Shown piece by piece: positions 31,501 to 47,640 of a stretch of DNA of 64,000 nt. Every line of letters begins with the position of its first letter. Within the stretch, counting starts at the first letter, position 1. The notes below the pieces were generated by a model. The model did no database searches. It had not been told where the DNA came from and was given only the letters and a program-made list of their open reading frames with translations. Source of the stretch: Ignavibacteriota bacterium. GTDB taxonomy: Bacteria; Bacteroidota; Ignavibacteria; Tepidaquicellales; Tepidaquicellaceae. A program made the translations under genes and the position numbers. The stretch spans positions 62,001 to 126,000 of the forward strand of contig JACREY010000008.1 of NCBI GenBank assembly GCA_016218085.1, written 5' to 3'.

Positions 31501-32844
31501 ATGAAAAAATTAATTTCCGTTATTCTGTTAATATTGATATATGGCGGCACTGTGTTTTCTCAGGAATCGATTGACTTAAAAAAAGCCATCTCCATCGCGA
31601 TTGAAAAAAACCCTTCCATTTCCACTATACAGAATAATCTGGCAATACAAAAGTTAAATATAAGTTCAGTCAGGGGTAATCTGTACCCGACTCTTGCACT
31701 GTCTGGAAGCTGGAGCAGGAATAACAGCTATTCTTCAGGCGGTACCCAGCTCATTAACGGAATACCCGTATTCATTCCGGACCAGAATACCTGGCAGAGT
31801 AATTTTAATCTCGGACTGAATTCTCAGGTGACCTTGTTCAACGGCTTTGCAAATTACCAGAGCATTGAACTCGAAAATCAGAATGAAGCAGGATTAAAGC
31901 TTCTCCTGGAAAAAACCAAAACCGATATCGTGCTAAATGTATATCAGAAGTTTTTCGATGCCGTGAAAAAGGAAAAAATTGTGCAGACATACAGGGCTAA
32001 CCTGAAAAACTCGACTGACCAGCTTGAAAAAATTAAGGAATATGTAAATGTAGGAAAGAAGACAGTTTCCGAAATCTACAAGCAGGATGTTCAGGTGGCG
32101 CAGAATGAACTTCTGCTGGAGCAGTCTCTGAATGATTTTGCAAAATCGAAAGTGGATTTGCTCTATGCAATGAATGATGACCTTGATAAGAATTTTGCGG
32201 TTGATGCCGGGGATATTAATGCCGATCTGACTGTTGCACAGCTGAAATCCATTCTCGATAAATCTACTAACATTAATGAACTTGTTAAGAATGCAGTGGC
32301 GGGAAGATATGATTATAAAAGCGCAATGCAGGATATAAGAATCAACCAGACAAAACTGAGCCTTGCAGTCAAAAATCTCTGGTTCCCGAGTATTTCAGCT
32401 TTCGGAAGCTATAATCTTACAGGTAAAGAAATAAGAAACATTGCCGACTCAAGGTCCTTTTCGGTTGGCTTATCTTTAAGCTATTACATTTTTCAGGGGA
32501 ATAAATATGATATTAGCAGGCAGATTGCCGAAGTGAATATTAAACAGAAATCAGAAGACATTGTAAAGCTCGAACAGCAGATAAAAAGCGATTTGAAAAA
32601 AGCCATTCTCGACCTCGAAACTTCATACAAGCAGATTGAAATACTCGACAGGAATATAAAATCTGCAGAGCAGGATAAAATCCTCTCGGAAGAAAATTTC
32701 AGAATCGGATACGGTACGCTGCTGGACGTGCAGACGGCTGCTACAAGTTTAAATAACCTTTTAATTAACAGGATTAATTCAATCTATAATTTTCTGTTTG
32801 CCAAAAAGCAGATAGATTATTTATCGGGACAATTAAATTATTAA
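31501..32844 (+). CDS. TolC-family outer-membrane efflux channel
   Basis: 447 residues with a cleavable signal (about residues 1-20, ending VFSQ). Two OEP repeats each with long coiled coils are visible: KAISIAIEKNPSISTIQNN at the start and AEQDKILSEENFRIGYGTLLDVQTAATSLN near the end, the classic TolC pattern. It forms the outer-membrane duct for the adaptor and ABC transporter encoded directly downstream. It is the first gene of the five-gene operon to 37372. No SD precedes the start. Confidence 0.92.
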   Translation: MKKLISVILLILIYGGTVFSQESIDLKKAISIAIEKNPSISTIQNNLAIQKLNISSVRGNLYPTLALSGSWSRNNSYSSGGTQLINGIPVFIPDQNTWQSNFNLGLNSQVTLFNGFANYQSIELENQNEAGLKLLLEKTKTDIVLNVYQKFFDAVKKEKIVQTYRANLKNSTDQLEKIKEYVNVGKKTVSEIYKQDVQVAQNELLLEQSLNDFAKSKVDLLYAMNDDLDKNFAVDAGDINADLTVAQLKSILDKSTNINELVKNAVAGRYDYKSAMQDIRINQTKLSLAVKNLWFPSISAFGSYNLTGKEIRNIADSRSFSVGLSLSYYIFQGNKYDISRQIAEVNIKQKSEDIVKLEQQIKSDLKKAILDLETSYKQIEILDRNIKSAEQDKILSEENFRIGYGTLLDVQTAATSLNNLLINRINSIYNFLFAKKQIDYLSGQLNY

Positions 32845-32857
32845 AATCTTAAATTAT

Positions 32858-34204
32858 ATGTCAGAAGAACAAGCTTTACCCAAACCGGTTGTTTCAAATA
32901 ACAAGAAAAAGAAAGCAAGAAAGAAAAAAATACTGTGGATAATTATTATTGCAGTAGTGCTCTTGATTGTAATTTCGGTTGTGGTCTCAAGCAAAAAAGA
33001 AAAACTGATAGAAGTGCAGACCGAAAAAATCGGAAGAAGGAATATTACCCAGGTTGTAACGGCTACGGGAAAAATTCAATCGGAAACTAAAGTAAATATC
33101 AGCGCCGAGGTGAGCGGCGAAATAGTCGAGCTTCCGTTTAAGGAAGGGGACGAAGTGAAAAAAGGCGACCTGCTTGTGAAGATTAAACCCGATGCTTATT
33201 ACCCCCAGTTAAAACAAAATTACGCTGCTATTAAAGTGCAGGAAAGCAACATAAAAACACAGGAAGTCAACCTCAGAAAATTTCAGCTTGAACTGAACAG
33301 AATTAAAGAACTTTATAATAAAGGCCTCGCATCTTCCAGCGACCTGGAAACAGCACAGGCTAACGTCGATGGAACTCTTGCACAGATGAATACTATCAGG
33401 GCGCAGATAAACCAGCAGAAAGCCTCGCTTTCTTCCGTCGAATATGATATATCAAAAACCACTATTTATGCTCCTATGTCAGGAACAGTTACCCAGCTAA
33501 ATAATGAAAAAGGGGAAAAAGTTTTAGGTACAAGCTTCAACCTCGGTAGCCAGATAATGACTATATCCGACCTTTCAAAGATGGAAGCCCAGGTGGAAGT
33601 CGGTGAAACGGATGTGACTTTGATAAACATAGGGGATACCGCAAGAATTCAGGTAGACGCTTTTCCGAACAGGGTTTTCAAAGGAGTGGTTTATGAAATT
33701 GCTAATACTGCAAAATCAAAAAGCGCGGGAACACAGGAAGAAGTTGTGAACTTTATCGTGAAAATAAGGATTCAAAACGAGGAATTCGAATTAAGACCCG
33801 GAATGAGCTGCTCAGTGGATATTGAAGTGGAAAAGAAAGATAACGTGCTCGCAGTTCCGATTCAGTGCGTTACAACACGTGATGACGACAGCACAAGCAT
33901 GAAGAAATTGGAACAGGAAAATAAAGATACACCTGAAAACCTATCTAACACTAAAGAAAATAAAGTTCTGAAAAAAATAAAACCAAAGGAAGTTGTGTTT
34001 ATCGTGGAAAACGGCGTAACAAAGAAAAAGGAAGTTAAAACGGGAATAAGCGACGATACTTATATCGAAATTACTGAAGGGCTGACCGAAGACCTTGAAG
34101 TGGTAAAAGGAAGCTTTAAAGCAATAAATAAAGAACTGGAAGATAATTCTAAAGTGAAAGTTGATAACGAGAAAAAGAAAAGAACATCAAAAGACAAAGA
34201 ATAA
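32858..34204 (+). CDS. MacA/HlyD-type periplasmic adaptor
   Basis: 448 residues. A Lys-rich cytoplasmic start and one membrane helix (about residues 27-44) are followed by the adaptor: [22 protein letters not shown] (lipoyl half), a coiled coil with [21 protein letters not shown], the second lipoyl half and the beta-barrel domain, [18 protein letters not shown] charged insertion (residues about 345-375) and a Lys-rich tail are unusual. It bridges the inner-membrane MacB-like permeases to the TolC channel. It lies 13 bp after the TolC gene and its stop overlaps the ATPase start. Confidence 0.92.
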
Positions 34205-34890
34205 TGAGCAACCTAATTGAAATTAAACAGATTACGAAACTTTATGAGATGGGTGACGAAAAACTTTATGCGCTAAGGGGAGTTGATCTGGCAATTCAGA
34301 AAAATGAATATGTCGCAATTATGGGTCCATCCGGCTCGGGTAAGTCCACCCTGATGAATATTATCGGCTGCCTCGATACACCTACTTCAGGAGATTATAT
34401 TTTGAACGGAAAAGATGTACACGAAATGAATGATGATGAGCTTGCTGAAATCAGGAACAGGGAAATCGGGTTTGTCTTCCAGACGTTCAATCTCCTGCCG
34501 AGAAGCAATGCTCTGCATAATGTGGAACTGCCGCTTATTTATTCGGGCGTATCGAGACAGGAACGGCTTAAAAGGGCTGAAGATGCGCTTATTAACGTCG
34601 GACTTTCAGACAGAATGACTCACAAGCCGAATGAGCTGTCAGGCGGGCAAAGACAGAGAGTAGCAGTTGCCAGGGCACTGATAAATAATCCCTCGATAAT
34701 ACTTGCAGATGAACCTACGGGTAATCTTGATACAAAAACAGGTGAAGAAATTATGGGGCTTCTCAGGGACCTAAATGAAAAAGGGAATACGATTATCATT
34801 GTTACTCACGAAGAAGATGTAGCCAAACACGCAAAACGAATAATCAAGATTAGGGATGGAATGATTGAATCAGATAAAATGAAAATGTAA
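34204..34890 (+). CDS. MacB/LolD-type ABC transporter ATPase
   Basis: 228 residues. All ABC motifs are present: Walker [10 protein letters not shown], signature [15 protein letters not shown], Walker [13 protein letters not shown] and the switch His in IIIVTHE. It powers the two adjacent permeases. In E. coli MacB the ATPase is fused to its membrane domain; here they are separate genes. The start overlaps the adaptor stop by one base. Substrates of MacB-type pumps include macrolides, lipopeptides and siderophores, so the cargo is unknown. Confidence 0.95.
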
Positions 34891-34894
34891 CCGG

Positions 34895-36121
34895 ATGAAT
34901 TTCATTATTGAAATAAAAGAAAGTCTATTAATAGCTTATACGGCAATTACATCTCATAAAATGAGGTCTTTGCTGGCAACTCTGGGAATTGTCATCGGGA
35001 TTACCGCAGTTACACTGATGCAGACTGCAATAGAAGGCATTAATAATGCATTTGAAAAAAGTATTGCATCCGTAGGCGCCGATGTACTTTATGTCCAGAA
35101 GTTCGAATGGTTTGGCAGGGAAGACTTCGAATTCTATCGCAACAGGAAAGATATCACAATGCAGAACTATGAATTCGTTAAAAGGTATTCCCAGACCGCA
35201 GATGTCGTTTCTCCATCGGTTGGCTCCATGCAGACCCTTCAGTACGGAAACCTTAACCTCGAAAACGTCTTTGTTATAGGAAGCACCGATGAATACCAGA
35301 CAACTCTTGGAATAAATATGGACGACGGTAGGTTCTTTTCATCGAAGGAATCCGAAGGCGGTTATCCAGTTGTTGCTATAGGAATGGATGTAAAAAATGC
35401 TTTCTTCCCAAATACTAACCCAATCGGACAGACAATAAAAATCGGCTCCTATTCATTTAAAATTATAGGAGTAGTAGAAAAACAGGGAAGTTTACTCGGA
35501 CTTGTCAGTCTCGATAACAGGGTAATAATTCCAATAGAAAAGTTCTTTAAACTCTATGGAACGAAGCGAAGCCTGTCGATAAATATCAAGGCGAAGGATA
35601 TTAAATCTGTGGATGAAACAAAAGAGGAAATCGCTTCCATAATGCGTAAGACAAGAAAAGTCCCTCTCGGCGGACGCGATGATTTCGGAATTAATCAGCA
35701 GTCGGCGTTCAGGGAAACATATGACCAGCTTACATCTCTGATTAAAATTATCGGACTCTTGATTACTTCCCTGTCCCTGATTGTCGGTTCAGTGGGAATA
35801 GCCAACATCATGTTCGTTTCAGTTAAAGAACGTACAAAAGAAATTGGTATAAGGAAAGCAATCGGTGCTAGAAAAAGAACTATCCTGCTCCAGTTCCTGA
35901 TTGAGTCATCCGTTATTTGTCTTTTCGGCGGTGTAATCGGACTTATGATTTCATTCCCGATAAGCCTGGTTATCGATGCAACTGTTCTACCGACTTCTAT
36001 GCCTTTGTGGGTTGTTTTTCTTGGTCTGATTATATCGCTTTTCTTCGGCGTTCTTGCAGGATTTTTCCCTGCATTCAATGCGGCAAAAATGGATCCGGTG
36101 GATTCATTAAGGTATGAATAA
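34895..36121 (+). CDS. MacB-type ABC transporter permease 1
   Basis: 408 residues with four membrane helices: one near residue 25, then three near 285-400. The MacB periplasmic core (SVGADVLYVQKFEWFG through IIGVVEKQGSLLG) and the C-terminal FtsX domain with KERTKEIGIRKAIGARKRTIL and PVDSLRYE at the end are clear. It pairs with the ATPase at 34204. A paralogous permease follows 18 bp later, so a heterodimer is likely. Confidence 0.92.
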   Translation: MNFIIEIKESLLIAYTAITSHKMRSLLATLGIVIGITAVTLMQTAIEGINNAFEKSIASVGADVLYVQKFEWFGREDFEFYRNRKDITMQNYEFVKRYSQTADVVSPSVGSMQTLQYGNLNLENVFVIGSTDEYQTTLGINMDDGRFFSSKESEGGYPVVAIGMDVKNAFFPNTNPIGQTIKIGSYSFKIIGVVEKQGSLLGLVSLDNRVIIPIEKFFKLYGTKRSLSINIKAKDIKSVDETKEEIASIMRKTRKVPLGGRDDFGINQQSAFRETYDQLTSLIKIIGLLITSLSLIVGSVGIANIMFVSVKERTKEIGIRKAIGARKRTILLQFLIESSVICLFGGVIGLMISFPISLVIDATVLPTSMPLWVVFLGLIISLFFGVLAGFFPAFNAAKMDPVDSLRYE

Positions 36122-36139
36122 AATATTGTAAAAAAAATT

Positions 36140-37372
36140 ATGGTAATAACCGAAACTATAAAACTTTCAGTAAATACGATTAAGAGCAATAAGCTCAGGG
36201 CAATACTGACTCTTGCAGGTATTACCATTGGCGTTTTTTCAATCATTACAATTATGACGCTTCTCGATGCATTGCAGGCAGGAATCGAAGGCGGCCTAAG
36301 CCAGCTTGGTAGCAATACATTCCAGATTCAGAAATTTCCGGCAATGAGTTTCGGTGGACCGGGCGCAATGGCTAAATACAGAAACAGGCCCGATATTACT
36401 TATGAGCAGGGTATGCGGCTGATAGAAAAAGCGAATGTATATAAATATATATCCCTCGAATACTGGAAAGGCTCTAAGACATTCAAGAATGAAAGGTATT
36501 CCACGAACCCGAATATGGGATTGTGCGGAACAAATCTGGATTTCCTTCCCTGTAATAACTATACAGTAAAGGAGGGAAGGTATTTTACGGATAATGAGAT
36601 TAATTCGTCAGCTAACGTGACAGTTATAGGAATGGAAGTAGTGAATAAACTCTTTCCGAAAGAAAGTCCGCTCGGAAGGAAAATAATTCTTGATAAAAAT
36701 GAGTTTACTATCATAGGAGTGCTGGAGTCGAAGGGCGAAAGCTTCGGACAAAGCCAGGACGGCCTTGCTCTTGTTCCGATATCCAGAATGCAGGAAATTT
36801 ACGGAAAGTCTGACCATTCAATAAATATTGCCATACAGGCTCCGAGCAAGGCAAGATATGAGGAATGCGTAGAAAATATTACCAGCGTGATGAGAATTAT
36901 CAGAAACTGCAAACCGGGAGAAGAAAATAACTTTGAGATTTTTTCTAATGATTCGCTGATAAGCACAGTTAATAACTTCACGAAATATTTTAAATACGGA
37001 GCGGGATTCATTTCCTTCATTGCTCTGCTTGCCGCTGGCATCGGTATTATGAATATTATGCTCGTCTCCGTAACTGAAAGAACCCGTGAAATAGGTATAA
37101 GGAAAGCTATAGGCGCAAAAAGCAGGAATATCCTTAACCAGTTCCTTGTGGAGGCTATTATCCTCTGTGAAATCGGCGGTATTGCCGGCATTCTTCTTGG
37201 CATTTTTGCTGGTAATCTGCTTGGAATCTACCTCCAGACTGTTGTTGTTATCCCTTATGACTGGGTTTTCATCGGCTTGATTATCTGCTCCCTTGTAGGT
37301 ATAATTTTCGGAGTTTATCCTGCATATAAAGCCGCAAAGCTCAACCCTATTGATTCTCTCAGGTATGAATAG
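36140..37372 (+). CDS. MacB-type ABC transporter permease 2
   Basis: 410 residues, paralogous to the preceding permease: same four-helix plan, EGGLSQLGSNTFQIQKFPAM at the start of the periplasmic core, TERTREIGIRKAIGAKSRNIL in the FtsX domain and the same PIDSLRYE end. The two permeases probably form a heterodimer. The last 14 bases overlap the end of the convergent kinase gene. Confidence 0.92.
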   Translation: MVITETIKLSVNTIKSNKLRAILTLAGITIGVFSIITIMTLLDALQAGIEGGLSQLGSNTFQIQKFPAMSFGGPGAMAKYRNRPDITYEQGMRLIEKANVYKYISLEYWKGSKTFKNERYSTNPNMGLCGTNLDFLPCNNYTVKEGRYFTDNEINSSANVTVIGMEVVNKLFPKESPLGRKIILDKNEFTIIGVLESKGESFGQSQDGLALVPISRMQEIYGKSDHSINIAIQAPSKARYEECVENITSVMRIIRNCKPGEENNFEIFSNDSLISTVNNFTKYFKYGAGFISFIALLAAGIGIMNIMLVSVTERTREIGIRKAIGAKSRNILNQFLVEAIILCEIGGIAGILLGIFAGNLLGIYLQTVVVIPYDWVFIGLIICSLVGIIFGVYPAYKAAKLNPIDSLRYE

Positions 37373-39387: not shown

Positions 39388-40236
39388 ATGAATCTCGATA
39401 AAGCATATATGCATTGCAGGAAAATTGCCCTCGGGCATTATGAGAATTTTCCTGTCGGCTCCCTGCTTTTTCCTGCAAAATACAGGAAATATATTTATGC
39501 GATATATGCTTTTGCAAGAACTGCGGATGATATTGCTGATTCCGATGAACTTAGCAGTGAAGAGAAACTTAAACTGCTGAATGAGATGGATTTAAAGCTC
39601 GACAGAATTTCGGAAAATAATACTTTGGATGATGAGATTTTTTTTGCACTAAGCGATACTGTACGTACGGTTGGAATACCGGTACAGGAGTTTAAAAACT
39701 TGCTTATAGCTTTCAGGCAGGATTCCCACAGGCAGAAATATGAAGAGTTTGATGAACTTATTGAATACTCAAGATATTCAGCAAATCCAATCGGACATCT
39801 TGTTCTTTATGTTTCTGGATTGAAGGACGAAAAGCTTTTCCGGCTTTCTGATTATGTCTGCACTGCGCTGCAGCTTGCAAATTTCTGGCAGGATGTGTCC
39901 GTTGACCTCAAAATGGGCAGAATTTATATTCCGCAGTCAGAAATGAAAAAATTTAATTATTGTTACGAATTATTAAATGTGCGGAATGAAAACAGTGACT
40001 TTATTGCATTAATAAAGTATCTTGTTGACAGGACAAGGTCTATTTTCAGTCAGGGAAAAGAACTGGAGAATTTCCTTAAAGGCAGGATGAAATATGAATT
40101 CAGGACTATGTACAGGGGGGGAATGATAATTCTTGATAAAATAGAAAAGATAGAATACAGGGTAATTTCACAAAGAGTTAATATTGGCAAAGCCGGTAAA
40201 TTAAATCTATTACTTAAAATATTCGCAAAATTATGA
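39388..40236 (+). CDS. hpnC: Hydroxysqualene synthase HpnC
   Basis: 282 residues of the squalene/phytoene synthase fold. Aspartate motif 1 is ARTADDIADSDE (Asp47, Asp48, Asp51) and motif 2 is FWQDVSVDLKMGRIYIP. In the HpnCDE route HpnC converts presqualene diphosphate to hydroxysqualene. It stands first of three genes in the order hpnC-hpnD-hpnE, which supports this assignment over phytoene synthase. The stop overlaps the hpnD start by four bases. Confidence 0.9.
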   Translation: MNLDKAYMHCRKIALGHYENFPVGSLLFPAKYRKYIYAIYAFARTADDIADSDELSSEEKLKLLNEMDLKLDRISENNTLDDEIFFALSDTVRTVGIPVQEFKNLLIAFRQDSHRQKYEEFDELIEYSRYSANPIGHLVLYVSGLKDEKLFRLSDYVCTALQLANFWQDVSVDLKMGRIYIPQSEMKKFNYCYELLNVRNENSDFIALIKYLVDRTRSIFSQGKELENFLKGRMKYEFRTMYRGGMIILDKIEKIEYRVISQRVNIGKAGKLNLLLKIFAKL

Positions 40237-41099
40237 GTGATGCTATAAATATTGTTAACGACAGCGCACAGCAGATTGTGAAAAAAAGCAAGACGAATTT
40301 TATGTATTCCACAATCTTTATTGGTCCCGAAAAGCAGGAAGCCCTTAAAGTCATTTATTCTTTTTGCAGGCACTCCGATGATATCGTCGACGATGAGCAA
40401 TCGGATTTCGATACAAAAAAAATAAACCTCGATAACTGGAGAAATGAATTTCTTAATTCGCTTAAGGGCATATCGAAGATTAAAATTCTATTGGACTTAA
40501 AAGACGTAATAGATAAATATAAAATACATCAGGATATATTCCTCGACCTGCTCAAGGGCATGGAAATGGATTTACTGAAAAACAGGTACGGGAATTCCGA
40601 TGAACTGAAAACCTACTGCTTTTATGCCGCTTCGACTGTGGGTCTGATGACTATCGAGGTGTTCGGCTATAAGGATAAGGCTATTAAAGAATATGCGGTG
40701 AATCTCGGCATTGCTCTTCAGCTGACAAATATTCTGAGGGATGTGAAAAAGGATGCATCAAAAGGCAGGATTTATATTCCCCTGGATGATTTGGAAAGAT
40801 TCGGCTGTACGGAAAAAGATATACTTGAATCACGATACAGCAGTAATTTTGCTGATTTAATGAAATATGAATGCGAAATTGCGCGCTCTTATTATAAAAA
40901 AGCAGATGCGTTCCTTGTGAAAAGTGAAAAGGGCAGAATGCTTTCTGCGAGAATTATGGAGCATATTTATTTCAGGCTTTTAAAGAAAATAGAGAAATCG
41001 GATTATAATGTATTTGAAAAGAGAATTAGAATATCAAAGTTCAGGAAGATTTTTCTGGCATACGGCGTTTTTCTTAAATATAAACTACTGCACAGTTAA
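40233..41099 (+). CDS. hpnD: Presqualene diphosphate synthase HpnD
   Basis: 288 residues. Motif 1 is YSFCRHSDDIVDDEQ (Asp49, Asp50, Asp53) and motif 2 is LTNILRDVKKDASKGRIYIP. It condenses two farnesyl diphosphates to presqualene diphosphate, the first step of squalene formation. Overlap with hpnC and a six-base gap to hpnE indicate one translational unit. The alternative label, phytoene synthase, is less likely in this trio. Confidence 0.9.
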   Translation: MSDAINIVNDSAQQIVKKSKTNFMYSTIFIGPEKQEALKVIYSFCRHSDDIVDDEQSDFDTKKINLDNWRNEFLNSLKGISKIKILLDLKDVIDKYKIHQDIFLDLLKGMEMDLLKNRYGNSDELKTYCFYAASTVGLMTIEVFGYKDKAIKEYAVNLGIALQLTNILRDVKKDASKGRIYIPLDDLERFGCTEKDILESRYSSNFADLMKYECEIARSYYKKADAFLVKSEKGRMLSARIMEHIYFRLLKKIEKSDYNVFEKRIRISKFRKIFLAYGVFLKYKLLHS

Positions 41100-41105
41100 A
41101 TACCC

Positions 41106-42434
41106 ATGAGTAAATCCGTTATAATAATCGGAGGAGGAATTGCAGGTATTGCATCAGCGGTTTTTTTGTCTGAAAAAGGTTTCAGCGTAAGTGTTTATGA
41201 GTCGTCTCCGAAATGGGGAGGAAGAACATTCAGCTACTTCGATAATGAAAAAAATATTTTTATAGATAACGGCGTGCATATACTCGGAGGATTTTATAAA
41301 AATACATTTGAGTTTATGAAAATCATAGGAACCTTTGATAAGCTGAAAGTTAAAAATAACCTGCAGCTTGTTTTTACAAATAAAGATAAGCAAATCCTGA
41401 ATTTCAAATGCGGGAATTTACCCGGTGTCTGGAGTCTTCTGTCCGGAATATTCTTCTTCAAAGGATTTAATTTCAGGGACAAGCTTGAATTTCTGAAAAT
41501 CAGAAAACTAATTAATGGCAAAGTATTTGAAGATGACAAACTAGAAAGGACTTCCGCATCTAAAATTCTGGAAATGACCGGGCAGACTGAAAACCTGATG
41601 AAGTATTTTTGGACACCATTGATTTTTGCAGCATTCAATTCGCCGCCGGAATATGTCAGCGGAAAATTATTGGTAAACTTGCTCAAAAAAGGAACGGAAA
41701 ATAAAAAAAATATGTCTTTATATTTGGGGAATGATACTCTCAACGGATTGTTTATAGATAATTCCTTAAAGTATCTGAATGAAAAATCTGCTTTACTGTA
41801 TAATAATTTAGGGGGAAAAAAGATTATTTTTGAGGGGAACTATATAAAATGCATTGAACTGGATAACGGAGAAACCGTATCCGCGGATTACTACATCTCT
41901 GCTCTTCCGTTTTATTGCTTTGAAAAAATATTCAGCCCTTCTGATTATGCTAAACATTTCAACCGTTCCGTGAATCTTCAGCCCTCAACTATAATTTCTG
42001 TTCATTTATTCTTTAAAAATGATATCAGTTTCAAACCTGATGGCGATATGACAGGATTAACCGGTACTTGCGTGCAGTGGCTTTTTGTGAATAACAAAAG
42101 GCATGTGTCTCTTGTTATAAGCGGAGCGGACTATGTTTGCGGAAATATGACTGAATTGAGTAATGAGGAAATCTATTTTGCATGTATAAAAGATCTGAAA
42201 TCCTGCCTTCAGAAATTTGATGAATCTGAGATTGGCAGTTATAAAATTATAAAGGAAAAAAGAGCTACATTCCTGACCGGCCCGGACAGTGAAGCATACA
42301 GGCTCAGGCAAAAAAGCAGCTTAGAAAATTTATTTATTGCAGGTGACTGGACGGATACCGGACTCCCTGCAACGATAGAAAGCGCTGTAACAAGTGCGGG
42401 AATTTGCACTGATTTGATAGTTAATAGAAAATAA
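41106..42434 (+). CDS. hpnE: Hydroxysqualene dehydroxylase HpnE
   Basis: 442 residues. An N-terminal FAD Rossmann motif (VIIGGGIAGIASAVFLSEKGF then VYESS) and the C-terminal FAD contact LFIAGDWTDTGLPATIESAVTSAG mark the amine-oxidase/desaturase fold. HpnE reduces hydroxysqualene to squalene. Together with HpnC and HpnD it replaces the single eukaryotic-type squalene synthase. No squalene-hopene cyclase is in the window, so the final product (squalene, hopanoids or sterols) is open. The next gene starts ten bases later. Confidence 0.9.
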   Translation: MSKSVIIIGGGIAGIASAVFLSEKGFSVSVYESSPKWGGRTFSYFDNEKNIFIDNGVHILGGFYKNTFEFMKIIGTFDKLKVKNNLQLVFTNKDKQILNFKCGNLPGVWSLLSGIFFFKGFNFRDKLEFLKIRKLINGKVFEDDKLERTSASKILEMTGQTENLMKYFWTPLIFAAFNSPPEYVSGKLLVNLLKKGTENKKNMSLYLGNDTLNGLFIDNSLKYLNEKSALLYNNLGGKKIIFEGNYIKCIELDNGETVSADYYISALPFYCFEKIFSPSDYAKHFNRSVNLQPSTIISVHLFFKNDISFKPDGDMTGLTGTCVQWLFVNNKRHVSLVISGADYVCGNMTELSNEEIYFACIKDLKSCLQKFDESEIGSYKIIKEKRATFLTGPDSEAYRLRQKSSLENLFIAGDWTDTGLPATIESAVTSAGICTDLIVNRK

Positions 42435-42444
42435 ATACCGTTAA

Positions 42445-45400
42445 ATGGCAAAGCATTCTTTGGGAATATGTATTGGCGCTTCAACTGTCTCTTTTGTGAA
42501 AACAAAAGAAACTGACGGTATTATATCTGTTCTGGAAATCCTGTCTTATACACACGAAGGAAATCCTAAAAAAGTAATCTCGGATTTCTTTGATGATTTT
42601 AATCAGGATAAAATTTCCGTTGTTGTAACGGGAAGAAAATTCAAAGAACTTATTAATGCACATTCAGTTTCCGAACCCGAAGCAGTCGAAGTATCTGTCA
42701 AATATCTTGATTTAAACGGGGAGGAAAAAGCAATTGCAAGCCTTGGCAGCGAAAGCTTTCTTGTGTATAACCTTAATTCAAAAGGCAGCATCGACAATGT
42801 TATAACAGGCAACAAATGCGCTTCCGGTACAGGTGAGTTTTTCCTGCAGCAAATCGGCAGAATGGATTTATCTGTTGAGGATACATCTTCGCTTTCTGGT
42901 GATGTGATTCCGTATAGTGTATCAGGCAGGTGCAGTGTCTTCTGTAAAAGTGACTGCACTCACGCTCTGAATAAAGGCATACCGAAAAGCCAGGTCGTTT
43001 CCGGTCTTGCAAAAATGATAGCTGACAAAACCATTGAACTTCTTTCTAAACAGAATTCAAAAAAACTGATTTTGATAGGTGGAGTTACAAAAAATTCAGG
43101 CGTAGTTAACCATATCAGAAAATCATATCCTGATCTGGTTATACCTCCTGAATCTTCATATTTCGAAGCTCTTGGCGCAAGTTTAATAGGATTAAAGAAT
43201 TTCTTCGGCTTTAATAGAGAATATCTTTATAAACACCATAAGCACTCATTTGCAACACTTGCACCTTTAAAAAACAGTAAAAACAGTGTAATATTTAAGG
43301 AAATTATAAAAGATAAGCCGAAATCCGGGGATGAATGCGTTCTTGGGCTTGATGTAGGCTCAACAACAACAAAAGCAGTTGTAATCAGATTAAATGACAA
43401 TGCGATTCTTGCCTCTGTTTATTTAAGAACAAACGGCAACCCTGTTCAGGCAGCAGTTAACTGTTATAAGGAACTTAAAAACCAGATTTTAACCGATATA
43501 AAAATAACAGGATTAGGCACTACCGGCTCAGGTAGAAGTATTGCCGCTCTTCATGCCCTTACAAACAGTGTAGTAAATGAAATTATTGCCCACGCAGTTG
43601 CGGCCGCTTTCTTTGATAAGGATGTTGACACAATTTTTGAAATCGGAGGTCAGGATGCAAAATATACCCACCTGACAAACGGAGTTGCTAGTGATTATGC
43701 TATGAATGAAGCTTGCTCGGCAGGAACAGGGTCATTCCTTGAAGAAGCTGCAAAGGAAACCCTGAACATAAATTATCTTGAAATCGGTGATATTGCATTT
43801 GAATCATCCGCTCCGCTTAATTTTAATGACCAGTGCTCTGCGTTTATTTCCAGCGACATAAAAAATGCAGGACACGAAGGAGCAAGTAGAGAAGATATTG
43901 TCGCTGGACTTGTCTATTCTGTTTGTATGAACTATGTGAACAGGGTAATGGGCAACAGGACAGTAGGGAAAAAAGTATTTATGCAGGGCGGGGTTTGCTA
44001 TAATAAAGCAGTGCCTTACGCTATGGCAAATCTTGTGAATAAGGAAATTATTGTTCCTCCGGAACCGGGACTGATGGGAGCTTTCGGCGTGGCACTTGAA
44101 GTTAAGAACAGGATTAATCTGGGTTTTACTAAAAAGGGTAATTTTGTCCTCGATGAACTTATTAAAAGAGAATTTAAATATAAAAATGAATTCATCTGTG
44201 CAGGCGGAGCTGAAAAATGCGACAGAAAATGCGGAATTGCTATGATAGAAGTCGAAGGTAAAAAATATCCCTTCGGCGGTGCCTGTAATAAGTATTATAA
44301 CGAAAGAAATAACCTGACTGCCGATGCCGGTAAACACAACTATGTGAACATCCGGCAGGAACTTGTTTTCAAAAAATATCTGACCGCCGAAATAAATGAA
44401 ACCCTTGCCGAAAAAAAGAAAATCGGCATATCTAAAAGCCTTCTGACAAATACTTTGTATCCGCTGTATTATAATTTCTTTACGAAACTCGGATTCGGAA
44501 TAGTGCTTCCCGATGAAGCAGAAACCTGCGGCAAAGATAAAATCCAGTCTTCTTTCTGCTATCCTGTCGAGCTGTCACACGGATTTTTTTCCAATCTCCT
44601 GAAAAAAGACATTGATTACATATTTCTTCCGCATATAACGCAGATGGACAGCCACAGCGAGCACCAGCACAACCGCCTTTGCGTGTTTGTTCAGGGTGAA
44701 ACGTATTATTTAAAGTCCACATTCAGGGAGGAAATCGATAATAAGAAAACACCGTCTTCCGGAAAAATAAAAATCATATCGCCTGTTATAGACTTTACGC
44801 TTCCAGAAAATGAGCTGAAAGAAATTTTTATAGATATTGCTAAAGAGCTCGGTGTAAGAAAAAATAAAGCTGTTCAGGCATATGAATATTCAGACGGAAA
44901 ATTCAGGGAAATGCAGGCGGAATTCAGACAGCTCGGCAGGCGCGCCCTTGAGGAAATTGAAAGCAGTCCCGATACATTCGGAATAGTACTTTTCGGCAGG
45001 TCGTATAATGCTTTTGCAAGAGAGGCAAACCTGAATATTCCTCACAAATTTGCCTCGAAGAATATTACCATTATCCCCCACGATTTTCTTCCGAATGATA
45101 TTAAGGACTCATATGAAAATATGTACTGGTACAGCGGACACCAGATATTATCAAATGCACGATTCGTGAAAAACCACGATATGCTCTTCGGAGTCTATAT
45201 TACAAATTTCTCCTGCGGTCCTGATTCATTCATACTGTCTTATTTCAGAAAAATTATGGGAAGCAAACCGTCACTTACACTCGAGCTTGACAGCCATTCC
45301 GCCGACGTGGGTATCGATACCAGGATTGATGCGGCAGTTGATATCATAAAAAACTATATAGCCATCCGAAACAAAGGAACAAAAGAAGATTTATCGGATA

Positions 45401-46755
45401 AGATTCAGCCGCTTAAAGTCATAACCGAGGAGAATAAAATCAGCATAATTGATTCGCAAAACAAAAAAACCGGAATTACTTCGGAAGAAGTCGAAGTCCT
45501 GATTCCTTCGATGGGACATTTCAGTTCGGACGCTTTTGCGGCAGTATTCCGTTCACTCGGAATAAACTGCAGGCCGCTGGATGTTCCGTCTTTCGATACA
45601 CTCAAACACGGCAGGGGACTTACTACCTGCAAGGAATGCCTGCCTTTTATACTTACTACGGGCTCATTGACTCAGTATCTCGAAAATCATTACGACAAGA
45701 ATAAAAAAACTCTTTTCTTTATGCCAAAAGGGTACGGCCCGTGCAGGCAGGGACAGTATTACATCCTGCTGAAGGATATCATCAATAATATGAAAATCGA
45801 AAACGTGGCAGTACTTACAATGGACGACGAAAGCTCTTTCGATGATTTTGGCAATGAGTTTTTTATTAAACAGTGGATTGCTCTTGTTATAGCTGATGTA
45901 GTTCATGACATTGAATCTGTTATTAATGCTATTGCCGTTGATAAGGAAAAAAGCCTTGCAACTCTGAACGAACAATGGAATAAAATTGTCGCTTCACTCG
46001 AGAGGGGACATAACGATAGCATTTTTGCACAGATTGAATTGTCAGTGCGGGCTTTGTCAGGCATTAAACTTAAAATTCCCCTTGAAAAAGCAAAAGTGAT
46101 TTCGCTTATCGGGGAAATTTACGTCCGCAGGGAAGAGTTTTCCCGTGGAAACCTTATGCAGACTCTTGCGGAAAAGGAATTCATTGTAAAAACCGCTCCC
46201 ATAACAGAATATGTTTACTATTCAAACTACCTCCTTAAAAAGGAAATCCTGAATGGTATGTCTATGAAGGATAAAACACTCCTGCACATAAAGGATAAAT
46301 ACCAGAGAATACTCGAAAGAAAAATTAAAAAAATGTTTGCGAAATCCGGTCTGATAAAATTTGAAATGATTGACATCGATAAGACAATGGAAATAGGTGA
46401 ACGGTTCATTTCATCCGAACTGATAGGAGAGGGGATTCTGACTACAGGTCTAGCTATGAGGGAAATTCTCGATGATGCCTGCGGAGTTATTTCAATAGGT
46501 CCTTTTAACTGCATTCCGAGCCGCCTGTCTGAGGCAATACTGAAAAAGGAAATGACCATCGAGGGGAAATACAGGAGTTTGGGTATCGGTAAGAACGGAT
46601 ATCCCGAAGAAATAAAAAATCTGCCCTTCCTCTATATCGAAACGGATGGAAATGCATTCCCTCAGATTATTCAGTCTAAAATCGAAATCTTTATGCTTCA
46701 AGCGGAAAAAATCCACGAAATACTAAATAAAAAAGCAGCAATTATTCAGAAATAA
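42445..46755 (+). CDS. Fused 2-hydroxyacyl-CoA dehydratase activase / double-cubane reductase
   Basis: 1436 residues, a multidomain ATP-driven reductase. Two ASKHA/BadF-type activase domains are visible: one at about 5-255 (GICIGASTVSF, CASGTGEFFLQQIGR) and a second, more canonical one at about 298-555 (GLDVGSTTTKAVVIR, CSAGTGSFLEEAA). A Cys cluster CAGGAEKCDRKCG follows near 585-597. The C-terminal half is DUF2229 plus an HgdB-like domain with CKECLPFILTTG (about 1062) and GPCRQGQYY (about 1099), candidate ligands of a double-cubane cluster. Such proteins reduce difficult substrates with very low-potential electrons. It lies ten bases after hpnE, an unexplained pairing. The substrate is unknown. 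Confidence 0.88.
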   Translation: MAKHSLGICIGASTVSFVKTKETDGIISVLEILSYTHEGNPKKVISDFFDDFNQDKISVVVTGRKFKELINAHSVSEPEAVEVSVKYLDLNGEEKAIASLGSESFLVYNLNSKGSIDNVITGNKCASGTGEFFLQQIGRMDLSVEDTSSLSGDVIPYSVSGRCSVFCKSDCTHALNKGIPKSQVVSGLAKMIADKTIELLSKQNSKKLILIGGVTKNSGVVNHIRKSYPDLVIPPESSYFEALGASLIGLKNFFGFNREYLYKHHKHSFATLAPLKNSKNSVIFKEIIKDKPKSGDECVLGLDVGSTTTKAVVIRLNDNAILASVYLRTNGNPVQAAVNCYKELKNQILTDIKITGLGTTGSGRSIAALHALTNSVVNEIIAHAVAAAFFDKDVDTIFEIGGQDAKYTHLTNGVASDYAMNEACSAGTGSFLEEAAKETLNINYLEIGDIAFESSAPLNFNDQCSAFISSDIKNAGHEGASREDIVAGLVYSVCMNYVNRVMGNRTVGKKVFMQGGVCYNKAVPYAMANLVNKEIIVPPEPGLMGAFGVALEVKNRINLGFTKKGNFVLDELIKREFKYKNEFICAGGAEKCDRKCGIAMIEVEGKKYPFGGACNKYYNERNNLTADAGKHNYVNIRQELVFKKYLTAEINETLAEKKKIGISKSLLTNTLYPLYYNFFTKLGFGIVLPDEAETCGKDKIQSSFCYPVELSHGFFSNLLKKDIDYIFLPHITQMDSHSEHQHNRLCVFVQGETYYLKSTFREEIDNKKTPSSGKIKIISPVIDFTLPENELKEIFIDIAKELGVRKNKAVQAYEYSDGKFREMQAEFRQLGRRALEEIESSPDTFGIVLFGRSYNAFAREANLNIPHKFASKNITIIPHDFLPNDIKDSYENMYWYSGHQILSNARFVKNHDMLFGVYITNFSCGPDSFILSYFRKIMGSKPSLTLELDSHSADVGIDTRIDAAVDIIKNYIAIRNKGTKEDLSDKIQPLKVITEENKISIIDSQNKKTGITSEEVEVLIPSMGHFSSDAFAAVFRSLGINCRPLDVPSFDTLKHGRGLTTCKECLPFILTTGSLTQYLENHYDKNKKTLFFMPKGYGPCRQGQYYILLKDIINNMKIENVAVLTMDDESSFDDFGNEFFIKQWIALVIADVVHDIESVINAIAVDKEKSLATLNEQWNKIVASLERGHNDSIFAQIELSVRALSGIKLKIPLEKAKVISLIGEIYVRREEFSRGNLMQTLAEKEFIVKTAPITEYVYYSNYLLKKEILNGMSMKDKTLLHIKDKYQRILERKIKKMFAKSGLIKFEMIDIDKTMEIGERFISSELIGEGILTTGLAMREILDDACGVISIGPFNCIPSRLSEAILKKEMTIEGKYRSLGIGKNGYPEEIKNLPFLYIETDGNAFPQIIQSKIEIFMLQAEKIHEILNKKAAIIQK

Positions 46756-46788: not shown

Positions 46789-47640
46789 CTAACGCTTGCC
46801 GCCTAAGTAAAACGAAACACCTCCGTAAAATCCGAAAAATCCTACTGTTCTGCTCTTGCTCATCAGCGAATTTAACGATGAGTTCGCAGCATCATTCAGG
46901 TACATATCCCCGTCACCTCCGGCTTTTACCTGGTCCGAACCCTTATTTATTAAATTAGCAATATGCATTCGTGTTCCAAAAGTTACCCCTAGATAATCAA
47001 CAATCCTGTATGAGTAACCAAGATTCAATCCCATTCCTAATCTTGTAGCGCTGACTATGTTATTATGATACTCGTAATTGTTTGAAGCCGCCTGGTCGTA
47101 AACTTTACCCCACATTACACTGAAATTGAAATCAGCCCCGAAATTGAAAATGGAACGCCTTTCTTTATCAGTATATAAAGCAATTTCCCAACCGTACGCT
47201 ATGTAAGGAGCACTTATCCTGATTGAACTTGAACCCGTTACTTCTTTTACCGATTTGTATGTCGTATCTGCAGGCCATCTGACGGGCACCATCCCTGTAT
47301 CATATACATTTCCGATATCATATGAGGTATTTTCCTTGCCATAGAAATTTGAAAAAGCAATTGTAAGGTAAGTCCTTATCTGTCCATCCTTGAAGTTGTG
47401 AACCGTAACCTTTGGTGTGTATGCCGCATAATATCCTCCGTTCACCCCGTATCCCTTGAATTCCCAGAAATCCTTTAACCTCGAACCTGAGAAATCAAAC
47501 CCGGGTAATCCGTATCCAAATGTCGCTTCCATTACTACATTGGGCTTTCTGAAAACTTTAGTGTTGAGCAGTTGTGCTGTTGTTGTCTCTGACAGGATTA
47601 ATATTAATGCCAGAAGAATAATGAAGTAATTTTTTTTCAT
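46789..47640 (-). CDS. Outer-membrane beta-barrel protein
   Basis: 283 residues with a signal peptide (about 1-22, ending TTTAQ). The mature part has alternating aromatic/hydrophobic strands typical of a small barrel (for example ATFGYGLPGFDFSGS, LGMGLNLGYSYRIVDYLGVTF) and ends in FFGFYGGVSFYLGGKR. No family is recognised with confidence. It lies between the activase and secA genes and appears to be its own transcript, with a terminator at 46732. Confidence 0.7.
   Translation of the reverse strand: MKKNYFIILLALILILSETTTAQLLNTKVFRKPNVVMEATFGYGLPGFDFSGSRLKDFWEFKGYGVNGGYYAAYTPKVTVHNFKDGQIRTYLTIAFSNFYGKENTSYDIGNVYDTGMVPVRWPADTTYKSVKEVTGSSSIRISAPYIAYGWEIALYTDKERRSIFNFGADFNFSVMWGKVYDQAASNNYEYHNNIVSATRLGMGLNLGYSYRIVDYLGVTFGTRMHIANLINKGSDQVKAGGDGDMYLNDAANSSLNSLMSKSRTVGFFGFYGGVSFYLGGKR

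What the first reader, a model, noticed from the sequence alone, without database searches (positions are those of the whole stretch)
39388..46755. Squalene operon joined to a giant low-potential reductase
hpnC-hpnD-hpnE are followed after ten bases by a 1436-residue protein with two activase domains and a double-cubane-type C-terminal half. The pairing suggests a reductive step on an isoprenoid or lipid, but the known reductase substrates are acyl-CoAs or small molecules. No cyclase gene is present.
Basis: partly seen in the sequence, partly recalled or inferred. Interest (0 to 1): 0.55.

Follow-up and report, generated by a model that had tools for sequence, protein, structure and literature searches.

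The report
Squalene operon with built-in reductase
In one order of oxygen-shy bacteria (Ignavibacteriales), the three genes that make squalene are always followed by genes for an ATP-driven, very strong reducing enzyme, which suggests an unrecognised reductive step, but the enzyme's substrate is still unknown and its relatives elsewhere work without squalene.

Summary
hpnC, hpnD, hpnE and, 10 bases later, a 1436-residue protein are at the stated place. The protein is a complete ATP-dependent low-potential reductase in one chain: two activase domains, a four-cysteine linker and two units of benzoyl-CoA reductase/2-hydroxyacyl-CoA dehydratase (BCR/HAD) fold. 'Double-cubane' is not supported by NCBIfam's model and stays open on cysteines.

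In the order, a reductase is the next gene after hpnE in 34 of 34 genomes where it can be seen: this giant in 10, and in 24 a two-gene version (600 + 1215 aa, about 25% identical, same domains). The giant took the split form's place once. The hpnCDE-reductase core stays whole in four genomic settings, which argues for a functional link.

Against a squalene-specific enzyme: 46 of 49 giant-bearing genomes elsewhere lack a convincing HpnE, two close relatives kept the giant without hpnE, and outside the order the genes are not adjacent (0 of 24). Own and order genomes have no convincing hopene cyclase, and the own genome no CrtI over cut-off, so the fate of squalene is open. A reductive step on the squalene branch is the best but unproven reading (0.45). 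The papers library held nothing on the pairing.

The parts
39388..40236 (+). hpnC, squalene synthase-type (hydroxysqualene-forming step)
   Evidence: TIGR03464 298.6 bits over cut-off 250.45; PF00494
40233..41099 (+). hpnD, presqualene diphosphate synthase
   Evidence: TIGR03465 266.8 bits, best hit, 12 bits under the curated cut-off 278.6
41106..42434 (+). hpnE, hydroxysqualene dehydroxylase
   Evidence: TIGR03467 284.7 bits, cut-off 283.05
42445..46755 (+). giant ATP-dependent low-potential reductase, 1436 aa, one chain
42445..43212 (+). giant, activase domain 1 (about residues 1-256; Cys125, Cys163, Cys167, Cys171 invariant)
   Evidence: PF01869 partial match at residues 95-249; Cys invariant in 79 of 79
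43336..44103 (+). giant, activase domain 2 (residues 298-553; Cys424, Cys464)
   Evidence: TIGR00241 299-551; 4eht/1hux activators matched
44197..44286 (+). giant, linker with four invariant cysteines 585, 592, 596, 614 (possible extra Fe-S site)
   Evidence: 79 of 79 giants
44362..45369 (+). giant, first BCR/HAD-fold unit (about residues 640-975, DUF2229; Cys705, Cys746, Cys924)
   Evidence: PF09989; VIA rows 1-10 all HAD/DCCP/BCR, Z 9.9-13.3
45412..46752 (+). giant, second BCR/HAD-fold unit (residues 990-1436; Cys1065, Cys1100, Cys1356)
   Evidence: model pLDDT 90.4; VIA rows 1-8 all HAD/DCCP/BCR, Z 10.1-12.0, next row 8.0; corresponds to the separate 600-aa protein, hhalign E 2e-22
31501..37372 (+). 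TolC/MacA/MacB/2x FtsX-type exporter genes upstream; neighbours, not counted as part of the core
   Evidence: Pfam OEP, HlyD, ABC_tran, MacB_PCD/FtsX; upstream of hpnC also in f2 genomes and in the giant clade, not in the split-form f1 genomes

Best explanation
This is a conserved squalene operon of Ignavibacteriales with its own ATP-driven reductase. Shown: HpnC, HpnD and HpnE are present (HpnD just under its cut-off), and the next gene in every visible case is a complete BCR/HAD-type machine, either as one chain or as two. Inferred from the family: reduced ferredoxin (or similar) feeds the [4Fe-4S] cluster held between the two activase domains; ATP hydrolysis pushes electrons at very low potential, perhaps through the linker cysteines, into the first BCR/HAD unit and on to an open-sited [4Fe-4S] cluster of the second. 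Inferred and uncertain: the acceptor is an isoprenoid of the squalene branch, so that the final product is a reduced squalene derivative rather than a hopanoid or a carotenoid.
For: Next gene after hpnE is the reductase in 34 of 34 visible genomes of the order: 10 giant (gaps 7-26 bases), 24 split (11-137 bases); 3 more end at a contig end. The hpnCDE-reductase core stays together in four different settings, including genus g7 where both flanks differ. A homologous system, about 25% identical, replaced the older one in the same slot: split form in f2 and most of f1, giant in one f1 clade. No f1 genome of 27 with a reductase has both forms. G015 carries an extra squalene/phytoene-synthase gene directly after the giant. 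Own genome has no SHC and no CrtI over cut-off, leaving squalene without a known consumer. The link holds with or without CrtI.
Against: Relatives of the giant are stand-alone genes in many anaerobes without HpnE (46 of 49; hpn genes in flanks of 1 of 80 loci, itself an order member). G023 and G025 keep the giant but have no hpnE. In f2 the giant lies elsewhere. All 34 genomes are one order with one shared origin, so they are not independent. Isolated trisubstituted double bonds are a poor substrate for this chemistry, whose characterised substrates are mostly CoA esters (general knowledge; passages of PMC11971306). No substrate, product or expression data.
Confidence: 0.45

Rival explanations
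1. Operon partners without a shared pathway: the reductase does a general job of anaerobes (detoxification, activation of another enzyme or reduction of a common metabolite), and in Ignavibacteriales it is merely expressed together with hpnCDE, for example as part of the response to anoxia.
For: 46 of 49 giant-bearing genomes lack convincing HpnE; giant present in records named Desulfobacterales, Clostridia, Spirochaetales, Chitinispirillales; giant kept without hpnE in G023 and G025; in other families of the class the split pair stands beside polysaccharide genes.
Against: Does not by itself explain why two different forms both sit right behind hpnE, why the core stays whole while its flanks change, and why f2 genomes with both forms keep the split one at hpnE.
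Confidence: 0.35
2. The reductase serves the last HpnE step: it supplies electrons to HpnE or itself removes the allylic hydroxyl of hydroxysqualene (an IspH-like reductive dehydroxylation at a three-cysteine [4Fe-4S] cluster with an open site; the comparison with IspH is recalled).
For: Immediate neighbour of hpnE; second unit has three invariant Cys spaced 33-50 and 252-265, close to BzdO Cys95/128/380 with an open site (PMC11971306, section 8); hpnCDE diverges faster in the giant clade (ratio to rpoB 3.19, 10 genomes, against 2.26, 13 genomes).
Against: HpnE is present and near or over its cut-off; HpnCDE of other bacteria needs no such helper (general knowledge); the rate difference is modest and G011 (split) has the highest ratio of all.
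Confidence: 0.12
3. Inherited neighbourhood only: an old chance arrangement kept by descent.
For: One order, hpnCDE tree largely follows the rpoB tree; the exporter upstream and secA downstream are also kept within clades.
Against: Flanks differ in four settings while the core does not, and the reductase was exchanged in place.
Confidence: 0.08

Closest known systems
Class I benzoyl-CoA reductase / 2-hydroxyacyl-CoA dehydratase (BCR/HAD) family, e.g. BzdNOPQ, MbdONPQ, HadBC-HadI
   Same: Two activase domains and two units of the same fold; three-Cys sites; ATP-dependent electron activation expected
   Different: All parts fused in one chain (or in 600 + 1215 aa), extra four-Cys linker, no CoA-ester pathway genes beside it, 8-16% identity to the solved subunits over the aligned parts
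Double-cubane cluster protein DCCP and its reductase DCCP-R (6eno, 7yyl, 7yzm)
   Same: Fold of both units (Z 10.3-12.7), activase related to DCCP-R
   Different: NF040772 not matched; six ligand cysteines not found within a unit; fused
HpnCDE squalene pathway of hopanoid producers
   Same: Same three enzymes in the same order
   Different: No SHC; a reductase as fourth member
C30 carotenoid route from squalene (e.g. Methylobacterium, PMC10448405; search listing and start of abstract seen)
   Same: Squalene without SHC
   Different: Own genome has no CrtI over cut-off (best 147.6 bits against 238.1)

Membership tests
BCR/HAD radical enzyme family | Activase (ASKHA ATPase) partner | tested here: met
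   TIGR00241 211.2 bits, cut-off 125.4, two stretches; PDB activators matched
BCR/HAD radical enzyme family | Two subunits of the three-domain BCR/HAD fold | tested here: met
   First unit Z 13.3, rmsd 4.3 over 269 to 3o3n_B; second unit Z 12.0, rmsd 4.8 over 280 to 3o3n_B, rows 1-8 all family
BCR/HAD radical enzyme family | Three cysteines for a [4Fe-4S] cluster in each unit | tested here: met
   Cys705/746/924 and Cys1065/1100/1356 in 79 of 79 giants; the cluster itself is not shown
BCR/HAD radical enzyme family | Acts on a CoA ester with ATP hydrolysis | not testable with these tools
   Needs biochemistry
Double-cubane cluster protein (DCCP) | NCBIfam equivalog model NF040772 | tested here: not met
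   Not among the giant's matches at E 0.001; the model is in the library
Double-cubane cluster protein (DCCP) | Six cysteines for [8Fe-9S] | tested here: inconclusive
   Three invariant Cys per unit, four more in the linker upstream of the first unit; the fit to 6eno begins inside the linker (model residue 36), so a linker contribution is not excluded
HpnCDE squalene synthesis | HpnC, HpnD and HpnE all over curated cut-offs | tested here: inconclusive
   HpnC and HpnE over, HpnD 12 bits under
Hopanoid pathway | Squalene-hopene cyclase in the genome | tested here: not met
   PF13249 in 0 of 59; PF13243 none in own genome, in the class 21 of 245 at E 0.001, best 74 bits
C30 carotenoid route | CrtI/CrtN-type desaturase over cut-off | tested here: not met
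   Own genome best 147.6 bits against 238.1; 35 of 59 genomes pass

The most novel reading that the evidence does not exclude
Ignavibacteriales make hydrogenated squalene (squalane or partly reduced squalenes) with an ATP-driven BCR/HAD-type enzyme: a member of this family acting on a hydrocarbon that is not a CoA ester, and a bacterial source of lipids now taken as archaeal biomarkers (the biomarker use is recalled).
Probability: 0.15. Interest if true: 0.82.

Novelty: new variant of a known kind. Interest (0 to 1): 0.5.

Why it matters
The giant and split reductases of this type are common in anaerobes, and I found no substrate for them in the papers held. A fixed tie to three enzymes of known product, in one order with culturable members, gives a short list of candidate substrates to test. 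It would also settle what a large group of bacteria with hpnCDE, but without a convincing hopene cyclase, does with squalene.

Tried and rejected
Joint loss of hpnCDE and the reductase in G003 and G006 looked like strong support, but both assemblies lack nearly all of secA, which lies beside the operon; in G006 the secA fragment stops at a contig end. These two were taken out of the argument. G042 (no hpnE, no split form, giant elsewhere) and G039 are fragmented drafts and were not used as losses either.

Two independent displacements of the split form by the giant, suggested by low hpnE identity between giant-bearing genera, was rejected: both trees need one change.

Sequence profiles of the C-terminal half and of the 600-aa protein found no family member among solved structures; only folds did. 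In the first VIA look only the first unit was covered, so the second was folded alone. Foldseek alone gave no match below E 0.001 for the 881-residue model and two for the second unit.

Neighbours of the giant in other phyla: no gene recurs widely; an MFS-type gene follows it in some Desulfobacterales. Neighbours of the split pair outside the order: GDSL lipase, glycosyltransferases and other polysaccharide genes, no lead. Promoter and terminator scans gave about as many sites as shuffles.

Paper searches with no useful hit on the pairing.
Full report
WHAT IS THERE. On the + strand lie hpnC (39388-40236), hpnD (40233-41099), hpnE (41106-42434) and a 1436-codon gene (42445-46755), with a 4-base overlap, a 6-base gap and a 10-base gap. 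HpnC and HpnE pass their NCBIfam cut-offs; HpnD is the best hit but 12 bits short. The window lies in a 3.31 Mb, 98% complete assembly. Five of its relatives in the collection have contigs of the same length as records named Ignavibacteria or Ignavibacteriae (G034, G038, G036, G030, G005 against L093-L097), so the order is called Ignavibacteriales here by inference.

THE GIANT. It holds two activase stretches and DUF2229. Seventeen cysteines are the same in all of 79 giants aligned (window plus 78 named loci): 125, 163, 167, 171, 424, 464, 518, 585, 592, 596, 614, 705, 746, 924, 1065, 1100 and 1356. Residues 556-1436 were folded with pLDDT 85.7 and pTM 0.84; the first unit matches 3o3n_B (HAD) at Z 13.3 and 6eno (DCCP) at 12.7, and rows 1-10 are all HAD, DCCP or BCR. 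Residues 990-1436 folded alone gave pLDDT 90.4 and Z 12.0 to 3o3n_B, with rows 1-8 all of this family and the next row at 8.0. So the chain is an ATP-driven electron pump plus a two-unit BCR/HAD catalytic body. The spacing of Cys1065/1100/1356 (33-50 and 252-265 over 79 giants) resembles the three ligands Cys95/128/380 of the open-sited cluster in BzdO (PMC11971306, section 8 read). The same paper gives six cysteines for the double cubane; only three are invariant per unit here, but four more lie in the linker just upstream of the first unit, so the cluster type is open.

THE SPLIT FORM. Many relatives have instead a 600-aa and a 1215-aa protein behind hpnE. Profile comparison shows that these are the same machine in two pieces: 1215 aa against the front of the giant (E 2.2e-48, 937 columns), 600 aa against its back (E 2e-22), at about 25 and 21% identity.

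ADJACENCY IN THE ORDER. 44 genomes of the order were searched (29 of family f1 with the own genome, 15 of f2). 37 have hpnE. In 34 the next gene is visible and it is a reductase in all 34: giant in 10 (G000, G001, G005, G008, G015, G016, G020, G026, G027, G028; gaps 7-26 bases), split in 24 (11-137 bases). In G002, G017 and G043 the contig ends behind hpnE. G036 has a second hpnE copy with 3.4 kb before the 600-aa gene. In G005 the giant is broken by unresolved bases (maps). The 7 genomes without a convincing hpnE are G003, G006, G023, G024, G025, G039 and G042. G003 and G006 lack nearly all of secA, hence the region, and G024 is 67% complete; G039 and G042 are fragmented; G023 and G025 have the giant between yfcH and secA but no hpnE. 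Of 27 f1 genomes with a reductase, 12 have the giant, 15 the split form, none both; in f2, 14 of 15 have the split form, 7 the giant, 6 both.

SETTINGS. The flanks of the core differ: exporter genes upstream and pantothenate kinase/mannosyltransferase genes downstream in f2; T9SS-type proteins or a 138-aa gene upstream and a MalT-like regulator or secA downstream in split-form f1; a histidine kinase upstream in g7; yfcH and exporter upstream and secA downstream in the giant clade. Only hpnC-hpnD-hpnE-reductase is constant, apart from T9SS-type genes inserted between the two reductase genes in some genomes.

HISTORY. On an rpoB tree (42 rows; G024 and G043 had no match and G034, G038 and G040 were not fetched) and on an hpnCDE tree (39 rows; G018 left out, hpnC of G005 and G022 not available) the giant-bearing genomes with hpnE form one clade (support 99 and 90). 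Giants of f1 and f2 together form one clade of 14 among 89 rows (support 100). The simplest reading is that the split form was at hpnE first and was displaced once by the giant. hpnCDE has changed faster relative to rpoB in the giant clade (3.19 against 2.26; 10 and 13 genomes, not independent).

OUTSIDE THE ORDER. In 245 genomes of the class, DUF2229 occurs in 83 and HpnE over cut-off in 196. Of the 41 DUF2229 genomes outside the order, hpnE positions were printed for 24: none is adjacent; 22 lie on other contigs, one 211 kb away, and in G149 the split pair stands 2.7 kb from a fused hpnC-hpnD gene on the other strand. Of 80 named loci with the giant, only L097, which is G005, has hpn genes in its flanks. 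I gave 50 of these 80 loci (49 genomes) to a search for HpnE: 3 pass the cut-off (L098, L109, L160, titled Ignavibacteriaceae, Chlorobiaceae and Ignavibacteria), and the best of the other 46 has 89 bits. The giant family therefore does not need squalene.

FATE OF SQUALENE. No cyclase N-terminal domain in 59 of 59 genomes (the control rings in B. subtilis). The C-terminal domain is weakly matched in 21 of 245 (best 74 bits) and not in the own genome. CrtI passes its cut-off in 35 of 59, not in the own genome. G015 has a third squalene/phytoene-synthase gene directly behind the giant.

VERDICT. The pairing is real, old and, in what I searched, specific to one order. The functional link is likely, the shared pathway is the best single reading, and the substrate is unknown. 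A general anaerobe function housed with hpnCDE is the main rival. Nothing on this pairing was found in the papers library, which lacks most subscription journals.

Noticed in passing
L092:2962-16051 (G008); [quoted passage not shown] L090 and L091 by gene clusters).
   Followed up: partly
L234:2053-3801 (G149): hpnC and hpnD are fused into one 582-residue gene in a genome of another family of the class.
   Followed up: no
L048:1632-2525 (G015): A third squalene/phytoene-synthase gene stands directly after the giant reductase.
   Followed up: partly
class of the window genome, 245 genomes sampled: HpnE is very common (196 of 245 over cut-off) while squalene-hopene cyclase matches are few and weak: squalene without a hopanoid pathway may be the rule in this class.
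   Followed up: partly
L261:1521-3017 (own genome): A CrtI-like protein well under the family cut-off (148 bits), function unclear.
   Followed up: no
window 46789-47640: A 283-residue protein with no Pfam or NCBIfam family between the giant and secA.
   Followed up: no
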